27,647 nucleotides of DNA from Baffinella frigidus (Eukaryota; Cryptophyceae; Cryptomonadales; Baffinellaceae), in NCBI GenBank assembly GCA_026770585.1, contig MU646343.1, positions 521,403-549,049 of the forward strand. The letters are read 5' to 3'. Positions within the stretch are counted from its first letter, which is position 1; every line of letters begins with the position of its first letter. Positions 1 to 25,872 of the stretch are shown piece after piece. Position numbers and translations under genes: made by a program. The notes below the pieces were generated by a model. The model had not been told where the DNA came from and made no database searches. It saw nothing but the letters and a program-made list of their open reading frames with translations.

Positions 1-150
1 CTCTCTCTCCCCGTCTCTCTCTCTCACACACACACACTCCCTCCCTATCTCTCTCTCCGTCTCTCTCTCTCTCTCTCTCTCCCTCCTCTCTCTCTCTCTC
101 TCTCCGTCTCTCTCGCTCTCTCCGTCTCTCTCTCTCTCTCCCCGTCTCAG
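1..150 (+). repeat. CT microsatellite
   Basis: CT/CCGT-rich tract ending in CCGTCTCAG, which looks like a splice acceptor on the plus strand. The following 25 bases recur inverted at about 262-310. Confidence 0.85.
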
Positions 151-508: not shown

Positions 509-586
509 CTGGGCCTCGGCGTACTTGCCGATCTTGACGAACGCGTTGCCCATCCCGCAGTAGCAGTCCGCGTGCAGCGGCGCTTC
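509..586 (-). CDS. Gene 1 exon 7 (last in window)
   Basis: 26 codons, EAPLHADCYCGMGNAF to KYAEAQ, TPR5 helix A and part of helix B. Acceptor GGCCAG|GAAGCG; donor GCCCAG|GTTATC, where the GT is the end of hairpin element B1. The next exon must lie left of the window or is unrecognised in 1-508. Confidence 0.82.
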
Positions 587-3500
587 CTGGCCCATCAAAG
601 TCGTCAGTTTTGACGCACTTTCCTGGAGACATTTGTGCTACACACCTTGCACAAAACAAGGTACCGTTGCCCATGCCGCAGTAGCAGTCGGAGTGCAGCG
701 GCGCCTCCTGCACCAGGAAAGTGAGTCAAACCTGACGACTTTGAGGGAAAGCGAAGTCTATTAAGTTGGTACACGTCGGCTTCACGCTGAACCCTCAAAG
801 TCGTCAGTTCTGACTCACTTTCCTGGAGCCGTGTGTGCTACACACCTTGCACAAAACAAGGTACCGTTGCCCATGCCGCAGTAGCAGTCGGAGTGCAGCG
901 GCGCCTCCTGACCCCTCAAAGTCGTCAGTTTTGACTCACTTTGCTGGAGCCATCCACACGGCGGGGTACGAAAGGATTTTCTGCATGCAGCGGCGCCTCC
1001 TGCACCCTCAAAGTCGTCAGGATTGACGCACTTTCCTGAAGCCATTTGTGCTGCACGCTAGCGTGTAGGGCTTCAAAAATCAGTGCCATAAACCGCTCCA
1101 GGGACGTGGCTCACAGCTAGCGCTTTCCTAAATCTTTCACGTTAAGGACAGAACTAAACCCTAAACCCTGAGCAATCTTGATGCACTTGATATAGTGTTC
1201 GACAGCCTCGCCGGGCTAATCTCATATGGAAACACTTTCCATCTAAAAAACTTCGGCAATGAAATTTACTACACAGAACGATTTTTACTAGTAATATTAA
1301 AGCAAACGTGTAGCAATTTTCATGGAAATCCAGTTTTTAAAATTAAAAGTGTTTCCACATTAAATCGCACATGACTTTTGCAGCTTGGGTTGCCAACAGT
1401 CACTCAGGCTCACAGCTGACCCTTTCGAAACAACAAACCAACCCTCATGATTGGACCAAATCGTCGATTTTAGATCGTAGATTTCCCCTTGATTTCCCCT
1501 TGCAGAGACCCCGGATCTGGGGTCGCTGCAAGGGTAAATCCCAAGTCTAAAGTCGATGATTTGGTCCAACTGGGAGGGTTGGTGGACCTTGATACACTCA
1601 CGCAGGCTCACAGCAGGAATTCAGTACAAAAGGGCGAATAGAAAGCCTGTAGGACGAGCCAGAATAAAACTCCGACAGAGCTAGGGTACTCTCTTCGGAA
1701 TCCTCAGCTGACCCGTTCGCAACAGCCTTGATGGTTGTTCAGGTTTTAGGGTGTATGGTTTAGTTCTGCCCCTGACGTGAAAGATTCAGGAAAGGGCTAG
1801 CTGTGAGCCACGTCCCTGGAGCAATTTCTGGCACAACCTTGATGCATATCCGTAGGAACCCCTATATGCCCATACGGATCGCCTACCGTAGGGTCCTAGC
1901 TTAGGGGTTATTCAAAATTCCTTCGCACTCCCTTAACCCTAAGAAACCTTAATGCACTTGATATAGTTTCGTGCATGTCAAAGGCAGCACTAAACCCTGA
2001 ACCCTAAACCCCAAGCCTCGCCATGAAGAGGGCTAGCGTGCAGGGCTTAAAAAATTCAGCACCAGAAACCGCTCCAGGGACGTGGCTCACAGCTAACCCT
2101 TTCCTGTTTCGTGCATGTCGAGGGCAACACTAAACCCTAACCCCCAAACCCTGAACAACCTTGATGCACTTGATGTAGTGCTCGACAGCCTCGCCGTTGT
2201 GGTTCTGCTTGAACTTGAGGATCGCGAGCGTCTTGTGGTTGTCCGCATCCCCCGGCTGCTTCACAACCACCTGTTTGGGGTTTGGGGTTTGGGGTTTAAG
2301 AAGAAGAAGAAGGTTTGGGGCTTGGCGGCCCTTTAGTACAGTCACGTCCGGAATTAGTGCCGGCCTCTTATCACCTGGTGCAAAGTTACGACCGGCGCGT
2401 CCCCAAGACACACTCCAAACGGTCGCCTGGCTGCTTCACAACCACCTGCTGGTTTCGAGTGTATTTATGGGACGTGCCGGTAGTAACGTTTTGGTACCGC
2501 CCGATCAGAGGCCGGTACTAATTTCGGACGTGGCAGTAGTCGCGCGACGGTCCACTTTTGGAGCCGGCGAGGTTCTGCTTGAACTTGAGGATCGCGAACG
2601 TCTTGTGGTTGTCCGCGTCGCCCGGCAGTTTGACCACTACCTGAAGTAGACGGAGAAATGGTTCAGGGTTTGCACGGTGTAGGGTTTTTAGGGTGCAGGG
2701 TGTAGGTTGTAGGGTGTAGGGTGTAGGGTGTAGGGTGTAGGGTGTAGAGTGTAGGGTGTAGGGTGTAGGGTGTAGGGTGTAGGGTGTAGGGTTCAAGGTT
2801 TTGTGATTATCCGCGTCGCCTGGCTGTTTGATAACAACCTGAAGGGGGATAATAAATGGTTTAGGGTTTAGAGCGCAAGGTGTAGGGTTAAGGGTGCAAG
2901 GTGTAGGGTTTAGAGTGTAGGGTGTAGGGTGTAGGGTGTAGGGTGTAGGGTGTAGGGTGTAGGGTGTAGGGTGTAGGGCTTGAGGTCTTGTGGTTGTCCG
3001 CATTCCCCGGCTACTTCACGACTACCTATTTGGGGTTTTGAGGTTTGATTTTCGGTTTTGGGTTTTGGGTTTTGGGTTTGGGGGTTTGGGTTTTGGAGTT
3101 TGGGGTTTGAGGTTTGGGGTTTGGGTTTGGGGTTTGGAATTTTGAGGTTCAGGGGTAAGAGTTTAGGTCATGCTCAGACACAGCCTCTCTGGGGATCCTG
3201 CGCACTCATAATCTCTGTGGGGGTGCATACCCACTCGGTGGGCTTCGAGGGTTTCAAATTTGAATTTGGGGCCGGTTTCTGGGGTTTTACGTGACCAAAT
3301 TTACACCAGAAAATCCTTCAAGTTGATTATCTCTGGGCAAGTTGACTTTTGTTGAAAGGTCCGTAGTCCACCGTGTGGATGACAGCAGTGTTGGGAATAA
3401 CCAAAGGAGAAAGAATTCGAGGAGGATTCCGATGGGAGTACCTTCTAGCTCTGTCCCAGTTCAATTTGGGCTCGCATATATTTCGCCCCCCCGAAATTTC

Positions 3501-6500
3501 ACAGGTGAATTTTGACCCCCCCCCCCATTGAAATTTACCTGTGAAATTTCGGGGGGGGCGAAATATCTACCAGGAGGATTCCGAAGAGAGTACCCTAGCT
3601 CTGTCGGAGTTTTATTCTGGCTCGTCCTACAGGCTTTCTATTCGCCCTTTTGTACTGAATTCCTGCTGTTAAATACTTTTAAGGACGAGCCAGGATAAAA
3701 CTCAGGCAGAGCTAGACTGTGCCAACCCACTGTCCCACCCGGTAAATTTCATGGGGGGGGGGTCAAAATTCACCTGTGAAATTTCGGGGGGGGCGAAATA
3801 TCTACGGGCCCAAATTGAAGTGGGACAGAGCTAGACCTTCTCCATGATGTCGACGGCCTCCTGCACCTCCCCCTGCTCGGCCAGGAGTGTCGCGAGGTTG
3901 AAGAGGCACACCTGCACACGCGGGAGACGCCGTCCACTTAGCAGCCACCAAGCCTCCAAAGTTGACGGATGCACACGACACACACAAAATGTCCAGTGAG
4001 GAATAGTTCGCCAACACTTCACTTAGCAGCCAACGGTGGCTTCACGGATACAGTCCATCTAAACGATTTGTACTAGAACCTTATCCATTGCCCTGGAACA
4101 TAACCGGAATTTCACCAACCCAGTAGGAACCGTCAGAGCGGTTCCTTGGTCGGATAGCGAGGGGGCAAATGGGTCGGGTATTTATTGGATTCAGTACCCA
4201 TATGGGCACTGAATCCCCCACAGGTTGGACACGACTCGTACAATTTTTGAGTTCGTACCCGAATTAAAAAGATCCGTTCGCCCCCTCGCTAGAGCGCTGT
4301 GCCGAGAAGTTGGCCACCCGGGAAATGGGAAATTGAGAAATTGGAGCCGTTTATGTCCACTTTTGAGAAATTTAGTACCAGATTTTTCTCAAAAGTGGAT
4401 AAACGGCTCCATTTTTTCCAATTTTCCATTTTCCGGGTGGCCAACTTTTCTGCACAGCGCTCTATCCGACCAAGGTACGCATCGTTTGGAAGCGAGCGAG
4501 TGCGATCCTAGCTTCCGTGGGATGAAATCCACAGCGGCCGTGCCGTGCCCGGACCGCGAATACTACGGGTAAGAGTAGATTGTGTGTCACGTCCACTTTG
4601 TACCAGGAAAAAGCCTTACACTCGCACTTTTACGTACAAATTTACCGGACATGGAGAACATTCCTGGTACACACCGGACGCGCCTGGTACAAATTGAACT
4701 TACAATCTACTTTTACCATTAGTATTCTCAGTCCGGGTGCGGTTGGTATCAAAAGAAAGGTCTCTCTCAAAACACATATGATGTGTTTGTTAAGGACTGT
4801 TGAGCCTGTCAACCGTAAGATTACTTTTCTTTCTTAAGTTGACATTTCTTAAGGCCCCGCCCGCCCGCACCCCCTGGCAGGCGGGGCCTAAATGTCTAGC
4901 TCTGCCTGAGTTTTATTCTGGCTCGTCCTGACTGAAGTTTTAAGAGCAGAAATCCAGTGCAAAAAGGCGAATAGAAAGCCTTTAGGACGAGCCACAATGA
5001 ATCTCGGGCAGAGCTAGAATGTGCATGTTTCTCTGACAGCGCGAATTCAAAGTGACACACTTCAGCGCGAGCGCTGAGACTACTCCTAGCCCTGCCCCAG
5101 TTCAATTTGGGCTCGCCATTATTTTGCCCCCCCCGAAATTTCACAGGTAAATTTCATGGGGGGGTGTCAAAATTCACCTGTAAAATTTGGGGGGGGGGCG
5201 AAATAATGGCGAGCCCAAATTTACTGGGACAGAGCTAGTACTCCATTCTGAGAAGGCCTAGCGTGACTAGGACCTAGCCCCTAGCTCTGCCCGAGTTTTA
5301 TTCTGGCTCGTCCTGAGGCTTTATATTCGACCTTTTTTTACTGGATTTCTGCTCTTCAATACTTTTACGAGCCAGAATAAAACTCGGGCAGAGCTAGAAA
5401 CCCCCCGACCCCCTCCCCGACAGAGGCTGGCACCGCACTCGCTCGTTTCCCGGCATGTCGTGTGAATCTCATCTCGGAAGATAAATGAATCAGCGCCCTA
5501 ACTAGCGTTTTCATTTGATTAGGGGCCCTAATTAAATTTACTATGCCCTAACTGATTTCTCCTATTCAACCGCCTATTGAAAAGGAACTGATTCAGTTAT
5601 CTTTCGAGATGAAATCGTTTAGGTAGAGCGTCAAACGGATCCGTCGGGCGTACGATGTGTCGAATTTGTACCACGAAACACTTTTTAAATCGAGGCGTTC
5701 TGAATTCCCCACTTGTGGTCTGGCGGGGGGCGTACGATGTGGTCGGGCTAACTGAATCAGTTCCCTAATTAGCGTTTTTATTTAATGAGGAGGCCTAATT
5801 GAATTTATCATGCCCTAACTATTTTCAGAACTGATTCAGTTATCTTTCAAGATGAAACCGTGCAGATAAAACGCCAGACGGATCCGGGGGGCGTACGGTA
5901 TGTCGAATTTGTACCACGAAACACTTCTAAAGCGAAGCGTTCTGAAATCCCCATTTGTGGTCGGGGGGGGGGGGGGCGCACGATGTGGTCGGGCTTCAGT
6001 TGGATGCACTGCAGCCACCTCCGCCGCGCTTTCGCAAGGTCCCCAGCCTGCGACCCCGGTTCAAGATCAGTACAGGAAATGGCCCGCCGCGTCACCATAA
6101 TAGGGCAACATCCTGAAAACCGGGTAGTTAGGCGTACGGTATTGCCTACGGTAGGCCGTAGGGGCCCTAGGACCTGGTGTTTCATAGGACCCCCCTAGGA
6201 CCCTACGGCCTACCGTAGGCAATACCGTGGGTCTAACTGCCCGGGTTTCAGGACGTTGGCCTATGAACCTAGCAGGTTATGTTTCGCAACGCGTCCGTTT
6301 AAATGAATTCTGAAACATGTCGTAGTATTTTAACACCAGAAAGTGCGAAATGGCGTCAACGCCACGCCAAAATGTGAGATGGAATGTGCGAGGTGGCGGG
6401 CGGGATGAGATACAGACAAGGGGCCCTGCCACGCCAGATTGGATGCGGGTGTTGATTTTTTTAAAACACCACAGGTGGTGTTTGTTAACTTTTGAAAACC

Positions 6501-7240
6501 TCTGCCTTGGGGGAGGAATTGACTTTTGGCAACACCTTCGAAGACTCTGGCGTGGTGGTCAACCACGGCGCGCTCCACTTAGCAGCCACCGAGGGCTTCA
6601 CGGATACAGTCCATTTAAACGATTTGTACTAGAATCTTATCCATTGCCCTGGAATCTAACCGGAATTTCACCTTGATTTCAAGGCGAAAAGGTCTTCGGT
6701 CGCTGCTAAGTGGTAGGTGAACCGCGCAGGGGTTGTGCGCACCGGGACGGAGGCTGGGCCGGGCTGAGATAGTACCAGAACACCATATGATGAGTCAACG
6801 GGTGTGGTACCCAAAAATCCTCTGAACAGTCAACGGGCATAATCCCAACAATCCTGTGATTAGTCCCACCGGGTGTGGTATTGGAAAATCCTCTTACGAA
6901 GAGGATGTTAAAACCTCCCTTTCTCAAAGGGTTCAGTCCACGCGACGATGGCCTGTGTACCAAACAGGTGGATTTTTGTTGAGTCTTTCTATTATTCCTG
7001 CACCTCTAAAAGTATTTCAATCCGGAATCCGGATAAGTTGACAGATTTGTGGGCGATTGAAGGCGAGTTGACTTTGCAAACAGAGGGGTTTGAACAGAGG
7101 GTTTTGGTGCACAGGTCATCGGTGCGTGGGTACTATAAGGTGGATGGGGCTCGCAACCTGGAGATGGGCCATGCCCGCGTGGTACTGTGCGTCGTGGTTG
7201 TCCGACGCGATCTCCGCCACCTGCCAGAGAGAGAGCGCGA

Positions 7241-7285
<45 letters not shown>

Positions 7286-9265: not shown

Positions 9266-9508
9266 CGCCCGCGAGTAAATTTCCGACAAGAAAATTGGGT
9301 CAAATCGTGGGGGCAGATTTTTGAAAAACAGGCGGTTCCGGTCGATTTCGAGCGTTTCCAGGCTGGGAATAGAAAGACACATCCTCGAGTTGATCCACTT
9401 CCGGACAGGATTTTTTTGACCAGCTTCAGCGGGCGCGTACTATTCCATCTTGCTGACAGCCGGACGCTGGCGTGCAATCACCTCAAGACGTGCAGGGAGA
9501 CGGGTAAG
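9266..9508. promoter_or_regulatory. Putative divergent promoter shared by genes 1 and 2
   Basis: The two start codons face away from each other, 243 bp apart. I see no hairpin element, microsatellite or telomere-type repeat here, unlike nearly all other non-coding DNA in the window. No clear TATA box was seen. The 5' untranslated leaders must also fit in this space unless there are upstream non-coding exons. Confidence 0.5.
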
Positions 9509-9679
9509 ATGCGCTCCTCGGGACTGCTCCTGGGATTCTGGCTCGCAGCGGCTGCGTTACTCTGTGGGAGAGCGAGTGCAAGCGATGCGGACGTTGCGAA
9601 AGCGATGGCAGACGACAACGGGGACACGAGCGAGGCGTGGGGGGTGCAGTCGGGGTGCACCGGCTGCTCATTCCACCAG
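9509..9679 (+). CDS. Gene 2 exon 1: signal peptide
   Basis: 57 codons. [20 protein letters not shown] is a clear signal sequence with cleavage likely near ASAS|DAD. The exon ends CSFHQ at donor CCAG|GTCAGT, a near-consensus site. The same frame is open far upstream, but without coding character. Confidence 0.8.
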
Positions 9680-11950: not shown

Positions 11951-12000
<50 letters not shown>

Positions 12001-12015
12001 CCCCTCTCTCCTCTC

Positions 12016-12065
<50 letters not shown>

Positions 12066-15000
12066 CCTTTCTCTCACCACGTCGTGGTCGAAGTCCGACT
12101 TTCCGAATCCCCTGATTTTCACCCAGAGTCGTCGGAATCCCACGAGCTCCAGTAAAACTCCAAGGGATTGAAAAAGGAGATGTGCTGCTATTCCACTCCG
12201 ACCCACAAGATTTCAGCTAAGTCAACCAGCTCTTTCCCCTGGTTTCGTTTAGATGGACCCTGGTCTGGGACCAGGCATTTGACTTAAGGCGCTAGCTTTC
12301 AGGGGGAGTTGACTTAGGCGAAATGTTGTGGCTCCGAGTGTATTCTGAAGGCTGGTGGACGCGATGACATTCATAGGCTAACGGCCTGAAAATGGGGTAG
12401 TTAGGCATACGGCATTGCCTAGGACCTCCTACCGTAGGCCGAGGGATCCTAGGACCAAAAAGTCTCGGCCTACGGTAGGAGGTCCTAGGCAATGCCGTAG
12501 GCTTAACTACCCCATTTTCAGGCCGTTACCCTATTAACATCCGACGACCTCCAGTACGAATCGCTGGGGTTAAAAAAAACGATGTGCTCCCACTCTGAGG
12601 GCTCGTTGGCGCAAGGGCGGGTGCGGGGGCGAATCCGACGACCTCTGCTACAAATCAAGCGAATTGGAACAGGTGATTTCCTTCCATTCTGAGGCCTGGC
12701 GGCGAGGGCAGGTGCGGGGACGGCGAAAGGGAGTATTGTTTGGTCTGCTGGGAGTATCCACCGCTCTCGGCTGGGAGTACTGTAATCCTTAACCCCTCCA
12801 CCAACCCCTGCAGGTGCGGGGACGGCGGGAAGGAGCAGTCGGGGGTAGACTGGACGCTGATCGTCGGGAACATGAGCGGGTCCAACTACGTGCGCGCGTC
12901 TGCGTCGTCGTGCAACGCCACGGCGGCCAACACGCCTGCGCAGTGAGCTCCACCCAGCCACACAGCCACGCCAGATTGATCGAGGGGAACCGACGCCTTA
13001 GCCACGTACGATTGCACGTGGTTGACTTAAGTATTCAAGGGGGTTTTCGTGAAAGATGTCAAAAGTGGATGTTTGGGTCATTCTGGTGTGGAGTGGTCTT
13101 CGCAGGTCGGTCCATGTTGTTTTTCGTGGTACTAATTAATGATTGCTTTGTACGAAGACAAGATAACCACACAGCGGACTTCGAAGGGATTTTGAATAAC
13201 CCCTTGAGTAACCGCAACGCCACGGCGGTCAACACGCCCGCCCAGTACGTTCCACGCAGGGGGCAATGGTCAAAGTGGTTTTGACCATCGGCAATGGTCG
13301 AAGTGTTTTTTGGAAACGTCAGTGGTCAAAGTTTTTTGTTGGAAATCCTGTGCCCTTCTCTGTCAAAAGTTGCCGAAACCCGACCTATCGGCTGCAAGAA
13401 CGACCCACGGTTTGAAATACGTTCGGGCGTTTGAGTCCTCTTGTCCACTTAGCAGCCGCCGAGCTCCTTTTCGCCTTGAATTCAAGGTGAAATTCCGGTT
13501 AGGTTCCAGGGCAATCGATAAGATTCTAGTACAAATCGTTTAGATGGACTGTATCCGTGAAGCCCCCGGTGGCTGCTAAGTGGATGTCAAGGCGGCTATC
13601 ACGCCTGCTCAGTAAGCTCTACCCAGCCACACAGCCACGCCAGATTGATCGAGGGAAACCGACGCCTTATCCACGTAAGATCTGACTTGGTTGACTTGAG
13701 TATTCAAGGGGGGTCCCTTGAAAGATGTCAAAAGTGGATGTTTTGATCCCCCTAGCGTGTCACTCGAGGCTAGAAATGGGACCATCTTAAATGTGGGGTT
13801 GTTAAATTTAGTACCAGTCACGGGCAGGTTTGGTCACGTTGCTGGGGGAATTCCCCCAGCAACGTGACCAAACGCCCTTTTTGTGTGAAATTTACTACAC
13901 ATCTCTTTTTTTCCTTCACTTGTAAAAGAATCCCAGTTTTAAAATGGTCCCATTTCTAGCCTCGAGTGGTGGTACACCCCGACGTTTGGAAACTAGATTA
14001 TTTTCCATTATACCTTTTGTACGGAGTCGCGTCCAATCTGGCGTTGGCTTTTTGCATGAGCTCTGTGCAAAAACTTGGCTGACGCCGGAATTAGGGCGTC
14101 CACGCCACACAGCGGGCTACGAGGGGATTTTCGGAACAAATCGGGCCGAGTTTCCGTTACCTTATCCGTAGGAACCCCCCTATGTGCCTATGGGTTGCCT
14201 ACCGCAGGATCCTAGGTCTTATCGCTCAGGGGTTATTCAAAACCTCTTCGAAGTCCGCTGTGTGGCTTACGTGGAGCTATCCGGGAATTCGTGACTGCTC
14301 TCCCAAGGTGGCCGATTCGTGATCCCAAAGTGGCCGACGTGTGCTCTCAAAGTGGCCGATTCGTGGTATAAACAGTAGAAAGACTCTGTTTCTCCAACTC
14401 AAACCTAGGCTCTTGCGTGGCGTCTCTCTCCTGAACCCGCTCTCTCATGAACCCTCTCTCTCATGAACCCTCCTTCTCATGAACCCTCTCTCTCCAGAAC
14501 CCTCTCTCTCCTGAACCCTCTCTCTCCTGAACCCTCTCTCTCGTGAACCCTCTCTCTCCAGAACCCTCTCTCTCCTGAACCCTCTCTCTCATTAGGGTTG
14601 AGGGTTGAGGGTTGAGAGTTGAGGGTTTAAGGTTCAGGGTTCAGGGTTCAGGGTTCAGGGTTCAGGGTTCAGGGTTTATGGTCTGATGAACGCTCTCTGC
14701 AGGTGTGAGGCGGCCCTGAACCCGCTCATTCGCGGGAGCACGCGACGTGTGCAGGTTCAGACCCCGGCCACAATAGATAATCAATCAAGTGGCGAGGCCG
14801 TCACATTTGACGGCCAAGAGATCATAGGCAGGTCCTAGGGCCCTACGGTAGGGCGTATGGGCCTACTCGCCGACGTGTGCAGGTTCAGTCCCCGGCCACA
14901 ACAGAGAAAAAAATCGCAACACGTCCATCTAAAGGATTTCTGGTACAAAAACCTAAACCTTAAACCCGAAACCCGAAACCCTAAGCCCTAAACCCTAAAC

Positions 15001-16660
15001 CCCAAACCCTAAACCCTAAACCCTAAACCCCCATCCTAACCTCCTCTCGTGAGTTGGACGCATGACCAGTTCGGGCTGCGGGGGGGATGCGCGGTCCCAA
15101 CAACGGGTTTAGGGTTGAGGGTATAGGGTGTAGGGTTTAGGTTTTTGCACCAGATTTTTTTTAGATGGGTTTTTGTACCAGAAATCCTTTAGACGGTTTC
15201 TAGCTCTGCCTCACTGAAACTGGGCTGACTGAGACCGGGCTCGCCATAAAAGAATTTTAGTTGCTCGCATGCACTGGTTTTCCTGCTGTAAACGTATTTT
15301 ATGGCAAGCCCGGCTTTGTTCAGGCAGAGCTACAGTGGACCTACCCCAACACAGGCTACCGTAGCACATACTTACCCTCCACACATACTCCTTCGGCCGG
15401 CACCCGATTTCCCCCTGCAAGGAAGTATGCCTGAAGGGTGGACACCATAACGCATACCTACCCTCCACACATACTCAATCAGTCCGGCCCCGACGGGTAT
15501 GTGTTAGGGTAGGTCCACTGTAGCACGTTCCACGCAAGGCCCTTCGAGGGTTATCCGGTGCCCGTTCTTGGAGCCGTTAGCCCGTTCCTGGAGCCGTTTT
15601 CAATTGAAATTGACTTTTCAATACCGGTTTCCCTTTGCGAATTGACTTTTGAAAACCCCCCCAAGAGCCCTCCGTGGCTTGCATTTCTCACGCAACGGAC
15701 GCAGGTCGAGTTCAGGCTGCGGGGGGGTTGCCTTTCCCCAAACCCCAAACCCTAAACCCTGAACCCCAACCCCTAACCCCTTATAAACCCCACACCCTAA
15801 ACCCTAAACCCTAAACCCTAAACCCTCAACCCCAAACCCTAAACCCTACACCCTCGCTGGTCGAGTTCAGGCTGCGGGGGGGATGGGCTGACCCCTGAAC
15901 CCTGAACCCTGAACCCTGAACCCTGAACCCTGAACCCTGAACCCTGAACCCTGAACCCTGAACCCTGAACCCTGAACCCTGAACCCTNNNNNNNNNNACC
16001 CTGAACCCTGAACCCTGAACCCTGAACCCTGAACCCTGAACCCTGAACCCTGAACCCTGAACCCTGAACCCTGAACCCTGAACCCTGATCCCTGATCCCT
16101 GATCCCAAACCCACCGGTTTTACTCAGGCAGAGCTGGCATGTTATTGCATCTCTCACGCAACGATTGCAGGTCGAGTTCCGGCTGCGGGGGAAGTGCTCG
16201 GCCGCGCAGCGGATATCGTGGCGCCTGCCGATCGCTGCTGACCTTGAGTGCACTAGCGTCGCTGAGGTCTCTCTCTCTCTCTGTCTCTCTCTCGCTCTCT
16301 CTCGCTCTCGCTCTCGCTCTCGCTCTCGCTCTCTCTCTCACACACTCGCTTGCTCGCTCGCTCTCTCTCTCTCTCCCGATCGCGGCTGACCTTGAGTGCA
16401 CTAGCGTCGCTGAGGTCTGTATGTCTCTCTGTCGCGCTCTCTCTGTCGCGCGCGCGCGCGCTCTCTCTCTCTCTCTCTCGCTTTCTCTCTCTCTCACACA
16501 CTCTCGCTCTCTCGCTCTCTCTCTCCCTCCCGATCGCGGCTGACCTTGAGTGCTCTAGCGTCGCTGAGGTCTCTCTCTCTCTCTCTCTCTCTCTCGCTCT
16601 CTCGCTCTCTCGCTCGCTCGCTTTCTCGCTCGCTTTCTCGCTCGCTCTCTCTCACTCACT

Positions 16661-16702
<42 letters not shown>

Positions 16703-16760
16703 ACTAGCGTCGCTGAGGTCTGTATGTCTCTCTGTCGCTCTCTCTCTCGCGCGCGCGCTG

Positions 16761-16809
<49 letters not shown>

Positions 16810-19800
16810 CGCTTTCTCTCTCACACACACTCGCTCGCTCGCTCGCTCGCTCGCTCGCTCTCGCGCTCTCTCGCTCCCTCCCGATCGCGGCTGACCTTGA
16901 GTGCACTAGCGTCACTGAGGTCTTTCTCTGCCTCTCTGTCTCTCGCTCGCTCTCTCGCTCGCTCTCGCTCTCTGTCTATCTCTTTCGCTTTCTCTCTCTC
17001 TCTCTCGATCGCTCTCTCTCTCTCGCTCTCTCTCGCTCGCGCGCGCGCGCTCTCTCTCTCTCTTTCTATCTATCTATATATCTCGTTGTTGACCTTGAGT
17101 AGGGCGCCGCATTCCGACGACCCCTCCACACGAGGGGTCGTCGGACCAAACACCCTGTTTAAAACCCGGAGAGTACTACAAGTGAGGCAGTGTGTAGTAA
17201 TTTCTATACGTTTCGTCACGCGGCTGCACGCTTTCCGTGTAGCCACGTGACCAACTCCATACAAAACGCTAACAATCGACATTTTACCAGGGTGTTGCAT
17301 CAGCCTCGTGTGGCTGTCCTCTGCCGCGGTTCTGATCCGGGTAAACCTATTTTTCTTTCATTTGATGGCAACGAAAATTACTACACAATTCGCTCTTATT
17401 AGTAATATTAAAGCATTTGTGTAGTAACTTTCGTTACCATCAAATGAAAGAAAAATAGGTTTCCCCGGATAAGTTCATCTGCAGTCAGCAGTTAATCTGC
17501 GGTTAGCTGCCACTCGAGAATGCTGGAGGATCCTATTTACATGTGGGGTTGTAAATATTTGTACCAGGATAAGGTGTTCCAACCTCGTGACCGGCCAATA
17601 TATGGCTAGTTGCGTGACCAATCAACGAAGGTCACTTCACAAATACCCACTTCAAAAAGCACATTGGTTTGAAATAGGCCCCTCTAGCGTTCTCGTGTGG
17701 TGCGGGAAGTTAATCTGCGCCCTTCGGAACGATGGGGCATGTTTGATGAGCCCGGACGTTGATGGTGGCTCCAATGGCAATGGAAGTTACTACACAAATG
17801 CCAGACATAAATTTATCTTAGTTTTAAATAGGCCCCTCTCGCATTCTCGTATAGGCAGGTGCAGGATCAGGTACATCACGGGGGGGCAGTGGGCCTGGCT
17901 AGCCGCGCCAGGTCATAAGTCGGATTTTCATTTTACTACACCATCCACGGGTAAAGTTGATTCTCACCAGGGAAACACGCCAAAAGTGTTGGGAATTGGA
18001 GCCCTTCGTGGGCACTACAATGTTTTTTTGTACTACGAAACACTTTTAGCGCGAAACGTTGCGTGTGAAATTCCCACTTGTGACATGGCGTGGTCCAGGT
18101 CCGCTCTAAGGTAGTGTCTGCGGTCAAGGATATCCACAAAGCGGGCTACGACGGGGTTTTCGGCCCAACATGGGCCGGTTTTCCGTTACCGTGTCCGTAG
18201 GAATCCCCCTATGTCCCTACGGGTTGCCTACCGTAGGGTCCTAGGTCTTATCGCTTAGGGGTTATTCGAAACCCCTTCGAAGTCCGCTGTGTGGATATAC
18301 GCGTATGAATGTTTGTTTCGCAGGTGCTGGACCAAGTGGAGCACGGGGGGGCGGGAGAGCTGGTCATCGCCGTCGTCATGATCATTGTCGGTACGTTCCC
18401 CGTTTCCATATGGGGTTTCCATAGGTTTGAGTTATGTTTCCATATAATCTGTTTCTCCAACTCAAACCTAGGCTCTTGAGAACGGTTCTCAATTTCCGTT
18501 ACCTTATCTGTAGGAACCCCCCTATGCCCCTACGGGTTGCCTACCGTAGGGTCCTAGGTCGTGTCGCTTAGGAGTTGTTCAAAATCCCTTCGTAGCCCGC
18601 CTTGGTGCTTTGGTGCTTTGTATTACACTGACATCGAAGACCACGCCCACCGCACTCTTGAGGTGATGGTAAGAATCTACGTACGCTCCCCAGCTGTTCT
18701 CCACTGTTACCTAAAGTTAACAGAGGTTCCACTTTTGTTTTGAGACGTCCCACTCTCGACTTTTGTCTCGGTGAGCAGCGCTCTCCAGCCGTGCTCACAA
18801 GATCATCATCGGTACGTTCCCCACATGGAAAAAAAATCAATTTATAAGCTCGGATACAGTCAAAATTACTACACGTTTGCTTTAATATTACTAATAAAGA
18901 CCGTTATGTGTAGTAAATTTCATTGAACCAAGTTTATAAATTAAAAGTGTTTCCATGTGATCCCCCAGCCGTTCTCAAAAGTCACTTCCCAGCCGTTCTC
19001 AAAAGTCAACACTCGACGGCTATGCTGACCCCCTCGGATCCGGGTAGTTGCGTAGGAACCTACGCCGTTGCCTACCGTAGGGAGCCCTTCGTACCCGTAC
19101 CCAGTCTCAAACCTGGCGCGAATATCGTCGTGGTTATGCTGACCCCCTCCACTCGAGAATGCTGGAGGGTCCTATTTATATGTGGGGTTGTAAATATTTG
19201 TACCAGGATAAAGTGTTCTAACCTCGTGACTGGCCAATATATGGCTAGTAACGTGACCAATCATCGAAAGTTACTACACAAATGCCCACTTTTAAAAGCA
19301 CATTGGTTTCACATAGGTCCCTCTAGCATTCTTGTGCGGCTCACTCGTTCCCCATCCGTTCTCGTTTTCATAAGTCACTTCCCCAGCCAGAAGTCAACAC
19401 CCCGCGGTTGGTAAACGTATCTGTAGAGATCCAAGCTGGTTTAGGGGATGGCACAATCTTGGTTGCACGCGTGTGGTTAGCGCCCCCACTCGACATTTCC
19501 GATCTAGCCCAGACCAACGCCCCTCGACACTCGACTATTTCTGATTTTTCATGACTTTCCCTTTTACAGTAAACACTCAGCACTCAGCACTCAGCACTAA
19601 ACACTCAACACCCAACACTCAACACTAAACACTAGTTTCCGTCATGGAAAACTCCCTACCTTTTTATATTCAAATTAGCAGAAAGGGCGCGCCTGCAACC
19701 TCAACGTGTGGCCTGGCGTGGCTCTCTCTCTATCTCCCTCTCTCTCTCTCTCGCTGTCTCCCTCTCTCTCCCTCTCCCTCTTGCTCTCTCTCTCTCTCTC

Positions 19801-19936
19801 TCTCTCTCTTGCTCTCTCTCGCTCGCTCTTTCTCTCTCTCTCTCTCTCTCGCTCTCTCGTTCTCCCTCACACACACGTCATCTGGCAGGGTTCTGCGCAG
19901 GCAGCTTGGTGATGCGAGCGCGGAACCTCGCTCTCT

Positions 19937-19976
<40 letters not shown>

Positions 19977-21548
19977 ATCTCTCTCTCTCTTGCTCTCTCT
20001 CTCTCTCTTGCTCTCTCTCGCTCACTCTCTCTCTCTCGCGCGCGCGCGCTCTGCCTTGCTCTCTCTCTCTCGCTCTCTCTCCCCCCCCCCTCTCGCTCTC
20101 GCTCTCTCGTTCTCCCTCACACACACGTCACCTGGCAGGGTTCTGCGTAGGCAGCTTGGTGATGCGAGCGCGGAACCGCACCCCGTCCTTCAACGAGAAG
20201 CCATCGGCATACATGACCCGCATGGAAAACGTCTGGCCCACCCACACGGTGGACTACGGACCTTTCATCACAAGTCAACTTACCCTGTGGGCAGTTAACT
20301 TTAAGGAGTGTATCATGCAGATTTGGTCACGTTACCGCTAAATCTAGGGGTCCCGAAACCCTCGAAGTCATCGGCATACATGACGCGCATGGAAAACGTC
20401 CGGCCCACGCCCGTGCTTTTTGACACCATCGGTGTTAATGTTTTTGACACCATCGTTTTTGAATGATTGTCACCATCATTTTTTATGAAATTTCGTGTCG
20501 AGGTGGAAAACGTCGCCTCGTTTTCGAAAGCGCTGTTTCGACAGCTGGGGGGTTCCGTGTCCACTCGAGGCTACAGATTATGACTAGTTAAAACCAGGGA
20601 TTCCTTACAAGTGAAGAAGAAAAAAACAGTGTGTAGTAATAATTCACACACAACCAATTGGCGGTTCTTCTCGTTAGTGGAGTTGCCCCCGGGGGCAGCT
20701 GACAACCACCCCAGGGTGCAACTCCACTACAGGGGCACCTCGCTCATAACAAAGCGCCCCCCCCCCTAGAACCACCCTGGGGCCTTAGGCATAGGCCTCC
20801 TGTAGGGTCCTAGGAGGTGTTTTTTTGTCAGCTGACAATCGCGCGTGGGTTTGCGACCGTCGACGCGCGCGATTCTTAAACCCACGCGCGCGCGTGTTTA
20901 TTCCTTAAGTGGCGAGTAGGATCATACGCCCTACGGTAGGGCCCTAGGACCTGCCTATGGCGAGTTCGGGTGAATGTGCACCCTTGGTAACATAAGGGAT
21001 AAGATTGATTCGTGCTTTGCGATTCTTAAACCCCACACAGCGGACTTCGAAGGGATTTTGAATCACCCCAAGCGATAAGACCTAGGACCCTACGGTAGGC
21101 AACCCGTAGGGGCATAGGAGAGGTTCCTACCGATAAGGTAACGGGAAGGTGGCCCGATTTGGGCCGGAAATCCCTTCGTATCCCGCTGTGTGGCACGCGC
21201 GCGCTTGTATGATTGATTCGTGCCTTGCGATTCGGCAGGAGGCGGAAGAGGGGTATGAAATGGACGGTCTCGGCGACGTCGATCCCGTGAACGAAACCTC
21301 CCCTTCCCTTCGAAGGGAGTTTGAATAACCCCTAAGCGATAAGACCTAAGACCCTATGGTAGGCAACCCGTAGGGACGTAGGGGGGGTTCCTACGGATAA
21401 GGTAACGGAAACTCGGGCTCTCAGAACCCGAAAATCCCTTCTTAACCTGCTGTGTGGCCTTTGGCAGGAGGCGGAGGAGGGGTATGAAATGGACGGTCTC
21501 GGCGACGTCGATCCCCAGAACGAGACCTCTCCTTCCCTCCGCCGGTAG
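9509..21548 (+). CDS. Gene 2: type I membrane protein with Cys-rich ectodomain, eight exons
   Basis: Exons 9509-9679, 9961-10061, 12814-12942, 14703-14754, 16171-16266, 18324-18390, 20139-20230 and 21468-21548 (alternative 21239-21328). Intron phases 0,2,2,0,0,1,0 all match, and split codons rebuild W91, Q134 and G206. The product is about 262 residues: signal peptide 1-25; ectodomain with 11 cysteines (50, 53, 73, 75, 83, 85, 92, 124, 135, 160, 178) and sequons N110 (NMS) and N125 (NAT); one transmembrane helix about 196-214, itself split by intron 6; then RARNR and an acidic tail ([15 protein letters not shown]). The positive residues after the helix fit an N-out, C-in topology. I do not recognise the family; a receptor-like or sorting role is only a guess. 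The exon 7 end is the least certain point. Confidence 0.78.
9680..9960 (+). other. Gene 2 intron 1
   Basis: No element or repeat was recognised; donor GTCAGT, acceptor CCCCAG. Confidence 0.5.
9961..10061 (+). CDS. Gene 2 exon 2
   Basis: Starts [11 protein letters not shown] after acceptor CCCCAG and ends at donor GACTG|GTGCCC in phase 2. It holds a dense cysteine cluster (DCHCPPN, GCVC). Read through, the frame runs straight into CCCTAAA repeat. Confidence 0.77.
10072..10235 (+). repeat. Interstitial CCCTAAA telomere-type array
   Basis: About 20 units of CCCTAAA with ACTCAACC variants at the right, starting right after the exon 2 donor. Confidence 0.92.
10354..10493 (+). mobile_element. Hairpin element A3
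   Basis: CCACTTAGCAGCTACCG ... CGGTCGTTGCTAAGTGG; its 3' hairpin uses TTTCCCCCG/CGGGGGAAA instead of CCTTGAA. CCACCCGCCCTC with similar flank occurs on both sides (10265, 10667). Confidence 0.85.
10498..10655. mobile_element. Possible hairpin element
   Basis: TCCTCCTAGCC ... GCCTCAGTC pairs loosely with GACTGAGGCTAGGATATCC. Confidence 0.35.
10700..10790 (+). repeat. Repeat Z1
   Basis: AGTTAACGGAGGTTCCACTT ... CCCACTCTCGACGTTTGTCT ... GCAGCGCTC; other copies at 18703-18790 and inverted at 24168-24240. Confidence 0.65.
11007..11153. mobile_element. Hairpin element E2
   Basis: CACACGGTGGACTACGGACC ... GAAGCCCACCGAGTG; opposite orientation to E1. Confidence 0.75.
11352..11490 (-). mobile_element. 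Hairpin element A4
   Basis: Inverted relative to A2; CCACTTGGCACCGGCCGAG ... GGTGGCTGCTAAGTGG; hairpin CCTTGAATTTAAGG. Confidence 0.85.
11531..11680. mobile_element. Repeat R2 bracketed by direct repeats
   Basis: R2 (about 11548-11655) is flanked on both sides by GAGACGCCAGGGGTGCA, a 17-bp direct repeat. Confidence 0.6.
11717..11835 (-). mobile_element. Hairpin element F5
   Basis: CCACGCCAGAGGGATCG, CATCCACTTTTGACATCTTT, CAAGGG/CCCTTG; its far end is decayed. Confidence 0.65.
11942..12074 (+). repeat. CT microsatellite
   Basis: Long (CT)n with CCTCTC interruptions inside gene 2 intron 2, pyrimidine-rich on the coding strand. Confidence 0.9.
12203..12331. mobile_element. Hairpin element V
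   Basis: CCACAAGATTTCAGCTAAGTC ends inverted as GACTTAGGCGAAATGTTGTGG; inner CTGGTCTGGGACCAG hairpin. Confidence 0.62.
12370..12538. mobile_element. Hairpin element B3
   Basis: The best B copy: arms of about 80 bp, nearly perfect, GTAACGGCCTGAAAATGGGG inverted, GGCCTACGGTAGGAGG core. Confidence 0.88.
12814..12942 (+). CDS. Gene 2 exon 3
   Basis: After acceptor CTGCAG the first base completes the Trp split from exon 2. The 42 whole codons ([13 protein letters not shown] to TAANTPA) hold sequons NMS and NAT. Donor GCGCA|GTGAGC. Extra copies of its 3' edge with donor-like sites lie at 13211-13250 and 13589-13650. Confidence 0.82.
12966..13091 (+). mobile_element. Hairpin element F1
   Basis: CCACGCCAGATTGATCGAGG ... 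TTCTGGTGTGG, 23 bp after the exon 3 donor; interior AAAGATGTCAAAAGTGGATG. Confidence 0.72.
13203..13250 (+). repeat. Copy of 3' edge of gene 2 exon 3
   Basis: GCAACGCCACGGCGGTCAAC then CCCA|GTACGT, a donor closer to consensus than the original. Confidence 0.72.
13445..13583 (-). mobile_element. Hairpin element A5
   Basis: CCACTTAGCAGCCGCCGAG ... GGTGGCTGCTAAGTGG with perfect hairpin ACCTTGAATTCAAGGT (read on the minus strand). Confidence 0.88.
13589..13759 (+). repeat. Second duplicate of exon 3 edge plus element F2
   Basis: AAGGCGGCTATCACGCCTG then CTCA|GTAAGC, then the same CCCAGCCACACAGCCACGCC flank and an F copy (13635-13759). The whole block duplicates 12920-13091. Confidence 0.72.
13761..13969. 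mobile_element. Hairpin element G1 with 44-bp palindrome
   Basis: CACTCGAGGCTAGAAATGGG inverted at both ends. A perfect palindrome at 13829-13872 (centre GGGGGAATTCCCCC) sits inside, followed by AAATTTACTACACA. Confidence 0.82.
14105..14265. mobile_element. Hairpin element C2
   Basis: CCACACAGCGGGCTACGAGG ... CTTCGAAGTCCGCTGTGTGG. Confidence 0.85.
14290..14365 (+). repeat. Short tandem repeat, about 27 bp
   Basis: Three units of CTCTCAAAGTGGCCGATTCGTG type. Confidence 0.65.
14437..14592 (+). repeat. Tandem repeat CTCTCTCCTGAACC (about 18 bp)
   Basis: Eight or so units mixing CT microsatellite with a GAACCCT telomere-like core. Confidence 0.85.
14594..14688. repeat. Telomere-variant array TTCAGGG / TTGAGGG
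   Basis: G-rich on the plus strand, just upstream of the exon 4 acceptor; opposite in strand to most arrays in gene 2. Confidence 0.85.
14703..14754 (+). CDS. Gene 2 exon 4
   Basis: Short 52-bp exon after acceptor CTCTGCAG. Its first base completes the split Gln, then [17 protein letters not shown] and donor GTGCAG|GTTCAG. The donor region is repeated beyond hairpin D6 at about 14869. Confidence 0.74.
14740..14905. mobile_element. Element D6 between two copies of the exon 4 donor
   Basis: GACGTGTGCAGGTTCAG, then a CCCCGGCCACAA stretch, occurs at 14745 and again at 14870. Between them is a truncated D element (14785-14868, GTGGCGAGGCCGTCA ... GGGCGTATGGGCCTACTCG). Confidence 0.7.
14940..15035 (+). 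repeat. CCCTAAA array
   Basis: About 12 units, some CCCGAAA. Confidence 0.88.
15053..15150. repeat. Weak exon 5 edge copy and short TTTAGGG block
   Basis: CCAGTTCGGGCTGCGGGGGG resembles the exon 5 start; a short G-strand telomere-like block follows. Confidence 0.45.
15199..15332. mobile_element. Hairpin element J5
   Basis: TCTAGCTCTGCCTCACTG ... TTCAGGCAGAGCTA with CGGGCTCGCCATAAAA arms; a diverged J copy. Confidence 0.65.
15331..15529. mobile_element. Hairpin element AA
   Basis: TACAGTGGACCTACCC ... GGGTAGGTCCACTGTA; CTTACCCTCCACACATACTC occurs twice inside. Confidence 0.65.
15680..15730 (+). repeat. Copy of acceptor and 5' edge of gene 2 exon 5
   Basis: TCTCACGCAACGGACGCAG then GTCGAGTTCAGGCTGCGG; matches the real exon at 16151-16190. 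A shorter copy lies at 15856-15885. Confidence 0.75.
15738..15855 (+). repeat. CCCTAAA array
   Basis: About 15 units with small variants. Confidence 0.9.
15893..16105 (+). repeat. Homogeneous CCCTGAA array with assembly gap
   Basis: Nearly 30 uniform CCCTGAA units, ending in CCCTGAT. Ten Ns at 15988-15997 mark a gap, so the true length is unknown. Confidence 0.93.
16171..16266 (+). CDS. Gene 2 exon 5
   Basis: 32 codons, [13 protein letters not shown] to ECTSVAE, phase 0 at both ends. Acceptor ATTGCAG|GTCGAG, donor GCTGAG|GTCTCT running directly into an 800-bp CT-rich tract. The 5' edge recurs upstream and the 3' edge recurs five times downstream. Confidence 0.8.
16267..17085 (+). repeat. 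CT microsatellite with four copies of exon 5 end
   Basis: CT/CGCT tract interrupted by GCTGACCTTGAGTGCACTAG-type copies of exon 5's last codons and donor at 16376-16418, 16530-16572, 16701-16720 and 16880-16921 (a fifth, short, at 17085-17101). Spacing is about 155-180 bp. Confidence 0.88.
17126..17313. mobile_element. Hairpin element N
   Basis: CCACACGAGG ... CCTCGTGTGG; an extra hairpin CCGACGACCCCT/AGGGGTCGTCGG spans its left end (17113-17143). Confidence 0.62.
17335..17470. mobile_element. Hairpin element H3
   Basis: About 50-bp arms (AACCTATTTTTCTTTCATTT) and the H core; nearly perfect fold. Confidence 0.85.
17510..17700 (+). mobile_element. Element G2
   Basis: CCACTCGAGAATGCTGGAGG ... 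CTCTAGCGTTCTCGTGTGG; interior TTGTAAATATTTGTACCAGG; a partial G tail repeats at 17781-17850. Confidence 0.75.
17978..18090. mobile_element. Q-type repeat copy
   Basis: CGCCAAAAGTG ... CACTTGTGACATGGCG with GTACTACGAAACACTTTTA, related to 5648-5742. Confidence 0.5.
18134..18294. mobile_element. Hairpin element C3
   Basis: CCACAAAGCGGGCTACG ... AAGTCCGCTGTGTGG, flanked by ATAT on both sides, the clearest short target-site duplication seen. Confidence 0.83.
18324..18390 (+). CDS. Gene 2 exon 6: first half of transmembrane helix
   Basis: [18 protein letters not shown] then MIIV and one base, with acceptor TTTCGCAG and donor GTCG|GTACGT (good match). The hydrophobic run continues in exon 7 after the split Gly. 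Its last bases and donor recur at about 18801-18820. Confidence 0.8.
18487..18600. mobile_element. Element C4, left end missing
   Basis: Starts inside TTTCCGTTACCTTATCTGTA, keeps the CCTACCGTAGGGTCCTAGG core and loses the terminal repeat. Confidence 0.7.
18703..18825 (+). repeat. Repeat Z2 and copy of exon 6 end
   Basis: Z2 matches 10700-10790. It is followed by AAGATCATCATCG|GTACGTTCC, a copy of the exon 6 3' edge and donor. Confidence 0.65.
18822..18959. mobile_element. Hairpin element H4
   Basis: CACATGGAAA ... TTTCCATGTG around the H core (ACTACACGTTTGCTTTAATA). Confidence 0.72.
19149..19339 (+). mobile_element. Element G3
   Basis: Close relative of G2 over its full length: CCACTCGAGAATGCTGGAGG ... 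CTAGCATTCTTGTGCGG. Confidence 0.75.
19719..20122 (+). repeat. CT microsatellite with copy of exon 7 start
   Basis: CT tracts 19719-19870 and 19928-20122. Between them 19866-19927 copies the exon 7 acceptor and first 12 codons (CTGGCAGGGTTCTGC). The 246-bp spacing to the real exon suggests a tandem duplication. Confidence 0.88.
20139..20230 (+). CDS. Gene 2 exon 7: rest of transmembrane helix and juxtamembrane tail
   Basis: After acceptor CCTGGCAG the frame gives FCVGSLVM, then [12 protein letters not shown] to RMEN. The donor is taken as AAC|GTCTGG (phase 0). A later in-phase stop of the exon near 20412 (CCC|GTGCTT) in a second partial copy is also possible, because element E3 has split this region into two copies of its 3' end. 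Confidence 0.7.
20242..20364. mobile_element. Element E3 inserted at the exon 7 end
   Basis: CCACACGGTGGACTACGGAC ... GAAACCCTCG, right end cut. It is flanked on both sides by TCGGCATACATGAC and ATGGAAAACGTC (20205-20236, 20370-20401), a roughly 45-bp direct repeat made of exon 7 codons. Confidence 0.72.
20559..20682. mobile_element. G-related remnant
   Basis: CCACTCGAGGCTAC ... TCTCGTTAGTGG with a GTGTGTAGTAAT core; diverged. Confidence 0.45.
20729..20900. mobile_element. L fragment (L8) and GC-rich hairpin
   Basis: ACAGGGGCACCTCGCTCATA ... CCTAGGAGG lacks its right terminus. GCGCGTGGGTTT ... AAACCCACGCGC (20843-20894) forms a separate hairpin. Confidence 0.6.
20899..21001. mobile_element. 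Hairpin element D1
   Basis: TTCCTTAAGTGGCGAGTAGG, CATACGCCCTACGGTAGGGC, ending ATAAGGGATA. Confidence 0.75.
21033..21193. mobile_element. Hairpin element C5
   Basis: CCACACAGCGGACTTCGAAG ... CGTATCCCGCTGTGTGG; opposite orientation to C1. The flank ATTGATTCGTGC then TTGCGATTC lies on both sides (21004, 21213). Confidence 0.82.
21239..21328 (+). CDS. Gene 2 exon 8: alternative terminal exon, copy a
   Basis: Near-identical to copy b after acceptor ATTCGGCAG, with one replacement (Gln to Val). The exon then runs into truncated hairpin element C6, which supplies the last codons (REFE) and the stop TAA at 21326-21328. If used it gives a tail three residues longer. Confidence 0.5.
   Translation, partial: EAEEGYEMDGLGDVDPVNETSPSLRREFE
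21309..21457. mobile_element. Element C6, left terminus missing, between the two exon 8 copies
   Basis: Starts at TTCGAAGGGAGTTTGAAT, ends CTGCTGTGTGG. The exon 8 segment (about 75 bp) is repeated on both sides. Confidence 0.8.
21468..21548 (+). CDS. Gene 2 exon 8: terminal exon, copy b
   Basis: After acceptor [34 protein letters not shown], stop TAG at 21546-21548. It lies 10 bp after hairpin C6. Chosen over copy a because its 3' end is not formed by an element. Confidence 0.72.
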   Translation, partial: EAEEGYEMDGLGDVDPQNETSPSLRR

Positions 21549-21555
21549 CGCGCTG

Positions 21556-25265: not shown

Positions 25266-25368
25266 CTAGCCCCAAAGTCAATTCGTCAACTTCCGAAGGT
25301 CAATACATCGACTTTGACGGAAGTGGCCGTGCCGTACCCCCGCGACCCACGTCCCCTCCAGCACCTTA

Positions 25369-25495
25369 ATCCGGGGACATGTTCAATTTAAAAGAAAACG
25401 GATCCCTATTTGTTCATAGGAGTTAGACGAAGCTTAATTAGGGCAGAATCCGGTTTGATAGGCCATTGTAGTTTACATTGAACATGTTCCCGGAT
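25369..25495. mobile_element. Hairpin element S
   Basis: ATCCGGGGACATGTTCAAT ... ATTGAACATGTTCCCGGAT, near-perfect ends. Confidence 0.8.
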
Positions 25496-25599
25496 GAACC
25501 TAGCCCCAAAGTCAATACGCCAACTTCCTAAAGTCAACACATCGACTTTGACGGAAGTGGCCGTGCCGTACCCCTGCCACCCACGTCTCTTCCAGCACT

Positions 25600-25737
25600 C
25601 CACACGGTGGGCCACGAGGGTTTCATTGGGGCTGGAATTCAGGGTGTTACGTGACCAAATTGCACCAGATTATCCTTAAAGTTAACTACCTCAAGGCAAG
25701 TTGACTTTTGATGAAAGGTTCGTAGTCCACCGTGTGG
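25600..25737. mobile_element. Hairpin element E4
   Basis: CCACACGGTGGGCCACGAGG ... CGTAGTCCACCGTGTGG. Confidence 0.82.
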
Positions 25738-25872
25738 CACGTCCCTTGCAGCACCTAGTCCGTTTCGAGACACCCAACGTCAATGCGTCAACTTCCTAAA
25801 GTTAAAATGTTGATTTTAGGGTGAGGTGATGGTTTGTTTTGCAAGTCCGGTCAGCTGTTTGCGTTCTGCATG

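What the first reader, a model, noticed from the sequence alone, without database searches (positions are those of the whole stretch)
594..21550. Exon-edge satellites: most exons have extra partial copies of their own boundary
Edges of gene 1 exons 2, 4, 6, 7, gene 2 exons 3-8 and the MORN exon recur 1-5 times, always with the splice site and always separated by hairpin elements or microsatellite. I know of no named process that does this systematically. It could be a by-product of element insertion with long target duplication, of replication slippage anchored at splice sites, or of intron growth.
Basis: seen in the sequence. Interest (0 to 1): 0.9.

Follow-up and report, generated by a model that had tools for sequence, protein, structure and literature searches.

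The report
Duplicated exon edges inside introns
In this algal genome the borders between coding and non-coding parts of genes often have spare, partial copies lying in the neighbouring intron; they look like leftovers of very frequent small tandem duplications that survive only where they do not break the gene.

Summary
I solved two genes (7 and 8 exons); 15 of 27 splice junctions have partial copies, 27 in all: same sense, in the adjacent intron, acceptor copies upstream, donor copies downstream, splice site included. The window belongs to a 382-Mb genome, probably a cryptophyte's. Four other genes of it, not chosen for this feature, also have such copies. So it is genome-wide. It is not special to exon edges: in one common test copies were found at 23 of 105 edges, 183 of 935 intron points and 2 of 47 exon centres. 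Introns equal edges; exon centres are depleted. Only in the window, which was picked for the feature, do edges exceed introns (11 of 26 against 76 of 411). Best reading: pervasive small tandem duplications, with TA-type MITEs and simple repeats added; a duplication overlapping an exon survives only if a whole exon with its splice site is left, which forces the pattern. The ingredients are known; the intensity is unusual.

The parts
509..586 (-). gene 1 exon 7 (TPR protein)
   Evidence: protein 53-59% identical to P0001-P0003
665..722 (-). copy of exon 7 acceptor edge (exon -14..43)
865..953 (-). copy of exon 7 acceptor edge (-45..43)
980..1056 (-). copy of exon 7 acceptor edge (-56..20)
1154..1213 (-). 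copy of exon 6 donor edge (75..134), part of a 165-bp repeat
1935..1967 (-). copy of exon 6 donor edge (92..124)
2160..2270 (-). gene 1 exon 6
2423..2448 (-). copy of exon 6 acceptor edge (-2..23), in the middle of hairpin 2337-2538
2563..2643 (-). copy of exon 6 acceptor edge (-2..78)
2798..2870 (-). copy of exon 6 acceptor edge (70% identical)
2985..3047 (-). copy of exon 6 acceptor edge (-20..41)
3837..3911 (-). gene 1 exon 5 (no copy found)
5683..5749 (-). copy of exon 4 donor edge, inside the tandem duplication 5482-5749 / 5749-5995
5982..6047 (-). gene 1 exon 4
7158..7220 (-). gene 1 exon 3 (no copy found)
8155..8211 (-). copy of exon 2 donor edge (40..97)
8502..8555 (-). gene 1 exon 2
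9119..9265 (-). gene 1 exon 1 with start codon (no copy found)
9509..9679 (+). gene 2 exon 1 (no credible copy)
9961..10061 (+). gene 2 exon 2 (no copy found)
12708..12733 (+). copy of exon 3 acceptor edge (-3..22)
12814..12942 (+). gene 2 exon 3
13214..13259 (+). copy of exon 3 donor edge (99..144)
13588..13743 (+). copy of exon 3 donor edge plus about 130 bp of intron
14703..14754 (+). gene 2 exon 4
14871..14908 (+). copy of exon 4 donor edge (41..78)
15060..15084 (+). copy of exon 5 acceptor edge (weak, E 0.016)
15679..15725 (+). copy of exon 5 acceptor edge (-25..21)
15856..15880 (+). copy of exon 5 acceptor edge (-3..21)
16171..16266 (+). gene 2 exon 5
16373..16921 (+). four copies of exon 5 donor edge in a CT-rich array (starting 16373, 16526, 16702, 16877)
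17855..17887 (+). copy of exon 6 acceptor edge (-3..29)
18324..18390 (+). gene 2 exon 6
18798..18822 (+). copy of exon 6 donor edge (54..78)
19840..19927 (+). copy of exon 7 acceptor edge (-48..39)
20139..20230 (+). gene 2 exon 7
20364..20408 (+). copy of exon 7 donor edge (59..103)
21231..21312 (+). copy of exon 8 acceptor edge (-7..74)
21468..21548 (+). gene 2 exon 8 with stop codon

Best explanation
The exon-edge copies are the visible part of a genome-wide background of small tandem duplications (units of about 40-270 bp), some later amplified into short arrays and split by TA-type MITEs and by growth of simple or telomere-like repeats. A duplication that starts in an exon and ends in the intron leaves a complete exon with its splice site plus a partial exon edge, with splice site, on the intron side. 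Duplications wholly inside an exon are removed by selection. That geometry alone gives same-sense copies, acceptor copies upstream, donor copies downstream, splice site included. Shown: the pattern, its presence in six genes, equal frequency in introns, depletion in exon centres. Inferred: selection as the cause of the depletion, and break repair or template switching at short homologies near stalls (hairpins, G runs, microsatellites) as the molecular step.
For: Common test in six genes: edges 23 of 105, introns 183 of 935, exon centres 2 of 47; in the four genes outside the window edges 12 of 79, introns 107 of 524, exon centres 0 of 34. At 20% divergence the search finds 28 of 30 planted edge copies and 49 of 60 planted intron copies, so intron copies are not favoured by power. 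All 50 splice-site-bearing copies that I kept are same-sense and on the intron side. Three kept copies lack a splice site: two interior fragments (actin-related exon 5, TCP1-alpha exon 15), each downstream of an edge copy that it overlaps in exon coordinates, and a copy of the coding end of HSP70 exon 19. Tandem units: gene 1 exon 4, gene 2 exons 7 and 8; HSP70 exon 15, an 88-89-bp unit bounded by TTCGACCT in intron and exon (by eye); HSP70-like exon 3, arrays on both sides. Local direct repeats not found elsewhere in the readable sample are also common in four arbitrary stretches (28 pairs in 20.3 kb, against 36 in the 27.6-kb window), though some of those look like exon edges too (by eye).
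Against: In the window edges exceed intron points (11 of 26 against 76 of 411, p 0.009), and a masked 30-mer scan peaks on the junction (13 of 27 against 1-4 of 27 at 15-105 nt into the intron at thresholds 22 and 23); without the mask the contrast nearly vanishes (13 of 27 against 7-13 of 27). A first version of the pooled test leaned towards edges (17 of 60 against 134 of 739, p 0.059). Six of 13 acceptor copies start at the CAG or GCAG of the acceptor, closer than random endpoints predict. Some hairpins lie at the joint of two copies, which a later independent insertion does not predict. The dispersed-element mask rests on about 100 kb, so some intron 'copies' may be neighbouring insertions of one element family, inflating the intron rate.
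Confidence: 0.72

Rival explanations
1. Hairpin (MITE) insertion with an unusually long, variable target-site duplication makes X-hairpin-X, and an exon edge is X when the target is a splice junction.
For: Flush or nearly flush cases: window 25264-25364 / 25498-25598 around hairpin 25366-25498, L016 4089-4131 / 4236-4278 and, beside an H1-like hairpin, L016 1104-1132 / 1265-1293, gene 2 exon 7 donor. In one search, 6 of 57 hairpins had a flanking direct repeat of score 34 or more against 2.4% of shuffled pairs.
Against: Of 44 distinct H1 copies 41 have TA at both ends; flanking repeats of score 26 or more in 9 of 44 against 21 of 220 controls, none flush at both ends; the only short one flush at both ends is 9 bp (L016 4403). 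Elements at some of these joints have one truncated end (by eye). Some copies have no hairpin between them.
Confidence: 0.1
2. A process anchored at splice junctions, such as breaks at co-transcriptional R-loops or template switching that resumes at the junction, duplicates exon edges preferentially.
For: Window edges 11 of 26 against introns 76 of 411; masked scan peaks at the junction; six of 13 acceptor copies begin at the CAG or GCAG itself.
Against: No excess in four genes not chosen for the feature: edges 12 of 79, introns 107 of 524; unmasked, 12 of 87 against 263 of 815. The window was picked because a reader saw the feature.
Confidence: 0.12
3. The copies are functional: alternative or decoy splice sites kept by selection.
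For: Differences between exons and copies fall mostly on third codon positions: 17, 13, 54 of 287 sites each, 55 synonymous and 29 not; one exon 6 copy (2798-2870) differs at 1, 0, 9 sites.
Against: Changes on the real exon are counted once per copy; one copy per edge, added by hand, gives 9, 11, 27 (57% third position), near the 50% that I estimate at most for a constrained exon against a neutral copy. One exon 6 copy carries an in-frame stop (2985-3047).
Confidence: 0.04
4. Assembly artefact.
For: One 10-N gap in the window at about 15988-15997.
Against: Copies differ from the exon by 3-30%; the TCP1-alpha exons join to a 500-residue protein 100% identical to a public transcript product.
Confidence: 0.02

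Closest known systems
Small tandem duplications from repair of staggered breaks (CST / Pol alpha fill-in; PMC8355091, passages read)
   Same: Direct tandem duplications of tens of bases; the paper says such duplications were also inferred from natural insertions in humans and plants.
   Different: There at induced breaks; here inferred from sequence only, with longer units, arrays and inserted MITEs.
Intron gain by tandem duplication of exon sequence with a proto-splice site (Drosophila, PMC2891723, passages read; potato, PMC4974935, search listing only)
   Same: Tandem duplication that includes a splice site, one copy ending up in the intron.
   Different: There new introns within exons; here existing introns grow, and no new intron position was shown.
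Introner elements and hairpin introns of Amoebophrya (PMC7789003, passages read)
   Same: Hairpins and direct repeats at intron borders in a protist.
   Different: Introner direct repeats are 3-5 nt and the element is the intron; here 9-78 nt of exon is repeated and the elements lie inside introns.
Tandem direct duplications by reversed-ends transposition of maize Ac (PMC3744419, title and start of abstract)
   Same: Transposon ends associated with direct duplications.
   Different: Not tested here; autonomous elements were not sought.

Membership tests
small tandem duplication crossing a splice junction | copy in direct orientation | tested here: met
   50 of 50 kept splice-site copies same-sense; one 19-nt antisense hit was dropped as chance
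small tandem duplication crossing a splice junction | partial exon lies only on the intron side of the intact exon | tested here: met
   acceptor copies upstream and donor copies downstream in all six genes (same calls)
small tandem duplication crossing a splice junction | unit contiguous, head to tail | tested here: inconclusive
   clear in gene 1 exon 4, gene 2 exons 7 and 8, HSP70 exon 15, HSP70-like exon 3; obscured by inserts elsewhere
small tandem duplication crossing a splice junction | short homology at the breakpoints | tested here: inconclusive
   TTCGACCT at HSP70 exon 15, TTCG at gene 2 exon 8, read by eye; no statistic
TIR transposon insertion with long target duplication | element flanked flush by the repeat | tested here: not met
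   H1 family only, 44 copies; other families not tested in number, single flush cases exist
Tc1/mariner-type MITE (for the H1 hairpin) | TA target duplication and terminal inverted repeats | tested here: met
   41 of 44 copies with TA at both ends (the search pattern included the TA, with up to 6 errors allowed); no transposase was sought, the superfamily is by recall of the TA rule
introner | the element itself is a whole new intron | tested here: not met
   in the window the hairpins lie inside introns and the copies are exon-derived

The most novel reading that the evidence does not exclude
In some genes of this alga a splicing- or transcription-coupled process breaks or re-copies DNA at splice junctions, so that junctions themselves, not just introns, are duplication hot spots; the window genes (11 of 26 edges against 76 of 411 intron points) would be examples.
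Probability: 0.1. Interest if true: 0.8.

Novelty: new variant of a known kind. Interest (0 to 1): 0.42.

Why it matters
If about one splice junction in seven (12 of 79 in four ordinary genes) has a spare copy beside it, this genome is a natural record of how introns grow by tandem duplication, and it supplies many duplicated splice sites on which intron sliding, splice-site switching and intron gain can be watched. It also warns that exon-edge copies need not mean an exon-specific mechanism.

Tried and rejected
Rfam at gathering threshold: no match in the window. Gene 2 protein: 1091 candidates, none at E 10 or better; no Pfam family at E 1. A 27-base MITE pattern in viral contigs: 0 matches. 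Pfam scan of the six frames of one 10-kb stretch, L016: no family at E 0.01, so exons there stayed unproven. Copies as once-functional exons: weighed with codon positions, not upheld. Long target duplications: tested on H1, not upheld. A first dispersed-element mask removed exon windows through paralogous genes; one search replaces it. One search gave 17 of 60 edges against 134 of 739 intron points pooled (p 0.059) and 8 of 40 against 79 of 432 in the four outside genes (p 0.83). Rows dropped: HSP70 exon 3 acceptor and exon 5 donor (microsatellite matches) and a 24-nt match between exons 7 and 18; TCP1-alpha exon 14 donor (AACCC-repeat match) and a 22-nt palindromic self-hit in exon 16. Kept though weak: TCP1-alpha exon 3 donor and exon 4 acceptor (19 nt, E 0.015-0.016). 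The two exon-centre hits are both in the window, where some edge copies are long. Actin-related gene: 14 exons predicted, 10 used and 9, the start of one shifted by hand from 9732 to 9726. Fetched but not used: L051, whose exons could not be resolved, and L054 (only its length and N count were read). My notebook's '13 of 14 exons begin with G' is wrong; it is 12 of the 13 that follow an acceptor.
Full report
WHAT WAS CLAIMED.

GENES. I solved both genes. Gene 1 (minus strand, 7 exons seen, 509-9265, open towards the left end of the window) encodes a TPR protein with relatives 53-59% identical. Gene 2 (plus strand, 8 exons, 9509-21548) encodes a protein with a likely signal peptide and membrane span (by eye) and no relatives found. 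All introns are GT-AG, and 12 of the 13 exons that follow an acceptor begin with G.

COPIES IN THE WINDOW. Each exon with 60 nt on either side was aligned to the whole window. I keep 26 copies (82-97% identical) and one at 70%, at 15 of 27 splice junctions; two chance hits were dropped. Every kept copy is in the sense of the gene, lies in the adjacent intron and spans the junction; acceptor copies lie upstream and donor copies downstream. None spans a whole exon. Exons 1, 3 and 5 of gene 1 and exons 1 and 2 of gene 2 have none. Some belong to plain tandem duplications (gene 1 exon 4: 5482-5749 / 5749-5995); others are separated by hairpins, CT repeats or AACCCT-like repeats.

THE GENOME. The window lies in a 382-Mb, 1364-contig genome. 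Its TCP1-alpha protein is 100% identical over 500 residues to a public transcript product, and the best hit after that whose organism is named is Hemiselmis at 82%, a cryptophyte. I infer a cryptophyte; the species is not known to me. Much of this genome is withheld here: of 20 stretches asked for, 16 read wholly N.

FOUR GENES NOT CHOSEN FOR THE FEATURE. They were taken because family searches found multi-exon genes; a fifth, L051, could not be resolved and is left out. HSP70 (L049, 19 exons seen): 2 clear edge copies among 36 splice edges, plus a copy of the coding end of exon 19. HSP70-like (L050, 4 exons predicted): exon 3 has 4 acceptor copies upstream and 3 donor copies downstream, the latter in an array with part of a CACACAGCGG-type MITE (by eye); exon 4 has one acceptor copy. 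TCP1-alpha (L053, 16 exons): 8 edge copies, two of them weak, plus one interior fragment. Actin-related gene (L055+L056): 5 edge copies plus one interior fragment. With the window that makes 50 copies with a splice site and 3 without.

THE DECISIVE CONTROL. Six genes pooled: edges 23 of 105, exon centres 2 of 47, introns 183 of 935; edge against intron p 0.6, edge against centre p 0.008. Without the mask: 24 of 114, 2 of 47, 451 of 1548. The four outside genes: edges 12 of 79, centres 0 of 34, introns 107 of 524; without the mask 12 of 87 edges and 263 of 815 introns. The two window genes: edges 11 of 26, centres 2 of 13, introns 76 of 411 (edge against intron p 0.009). An earlier mask, flawed by paralogous genes, gave 17 of 60 edges and 134 of 739 introns, p 0.059. 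30-mer scans gave 13 of 27 at window edges against 1-4 of 27 in the flanking intron with the mask, but 13 of 27 against 7-13 of 27 without it, and in HSP70 1 of 36 at edges against 13-18 of 36 without and 3-7 of 36 with the mask. In a planting test at 20% divergence 28 of 30 edge copies and 49 of 60 intron copies were found; an intron pair of equal age should be more diverged than an exon pair, so introns are if anything under-counted, against which stands the incomplete repeat mask. The window's excess is real for the window, but the window came to attention because of it.

READING. A tandem duplication running from inside an exon into the intron always leaves an intact exon with its junction and a truncated exon edge with its junction on the intron side. 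Duplications inside an exon damage the protein and should be lost, hence the nearly empty exon centres. HSP70 exon 15 shows the event almost naked: an 88-89-bp unit whose ends are the same 8 bases, TTCGACCT, once in the exon and once in the intron (by eye). HSP70-like exon 3 shows later amplification. Local direct repeats are also frequent in arbitrary stretches: 28 pairs in 20.3 kb of L015, L016, L019 and L022 against 36 in the 27.6-kb window; some look like exon edges too (by eye).

THE HAIRPINS. The H1 family lies between TA and TA in 41 of 44 distinct copies, and none of its 9 stronger flanking repeats is flush with both ends: an ordinary TA-duplicating MITE, as far as tested. Yet some hairpins, one of them H1-like, sit at or near the joint of two copies (window 25366-25498; L016 1142-1267 and 4132-4235; gene 2 exon 7 donor), more than I would expect from independent insertion, so hairpins may provoke some duplications. 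I did not test the other families in number.

CODON POSITIONS. Exon-copy differences by codon position are 17, 13 and 54 of 287 each; one copy per edge gives 9, 11 and 27 (added by hand), roughly what a constrained exon against a neutral copy would give. One copy, 2798-2870, has 1, 0 and 9, which fits less well.

LIMITS. Outside genes number four; exon structures of the actin-related and HSP70-like genes are predictions; the repeat mask rests on about 100 kb; breakpoints were read by eye. Six paper searches listed no title on systematic exon-edge copies, but the library holds only open-licence papers and I read passages of four papers only.

VERDICT. Real, present across this genome and vivid, but best explained by a heavy background of small tandem duplications filtered by selection; interest moderate.

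Noticed in passing
window 25222-25805: A roughly 100-bp tandem unit, not recognised as coding, repeats three to four times with two different hairpin elements inserted at about the same place of the unit.
   Followed up: partly
window 2337-2538: A copy of the exon 6 acceptor edge lies in the middle of a 200-bp hairpin element.
   Followed up: no
L050 3653-3739 and flanks: One 87-nt HSP70-like exon has satellite arrays on both sides; all four acceptor copies stop at exon base 37-38, at a run of G; copies of gene 2 exons 5 and 6 acceptor edges also stop at G runs.
   Followed up: partly
G000:C709 130108-134621: Two HSP70 genes in opposite orientation, uninterrupted over the whole Pfam domain, beside a 19-exon HSP70 gene elsewhere.
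   Followed up: no
L055 2868-3083: An exon-edge copy is in two overlapping pieces (exon -3..29 and 17..61) 138 bases apart, as if an insert with a 13-base target duplication had landed in the copy.
   Followed up: no
window 10075-16130: Long stretches of AACCCT-like, telomere-resembling repeats inside introns, one with a 10-N assembly gap at about 15988-15997.
   Followed up: no
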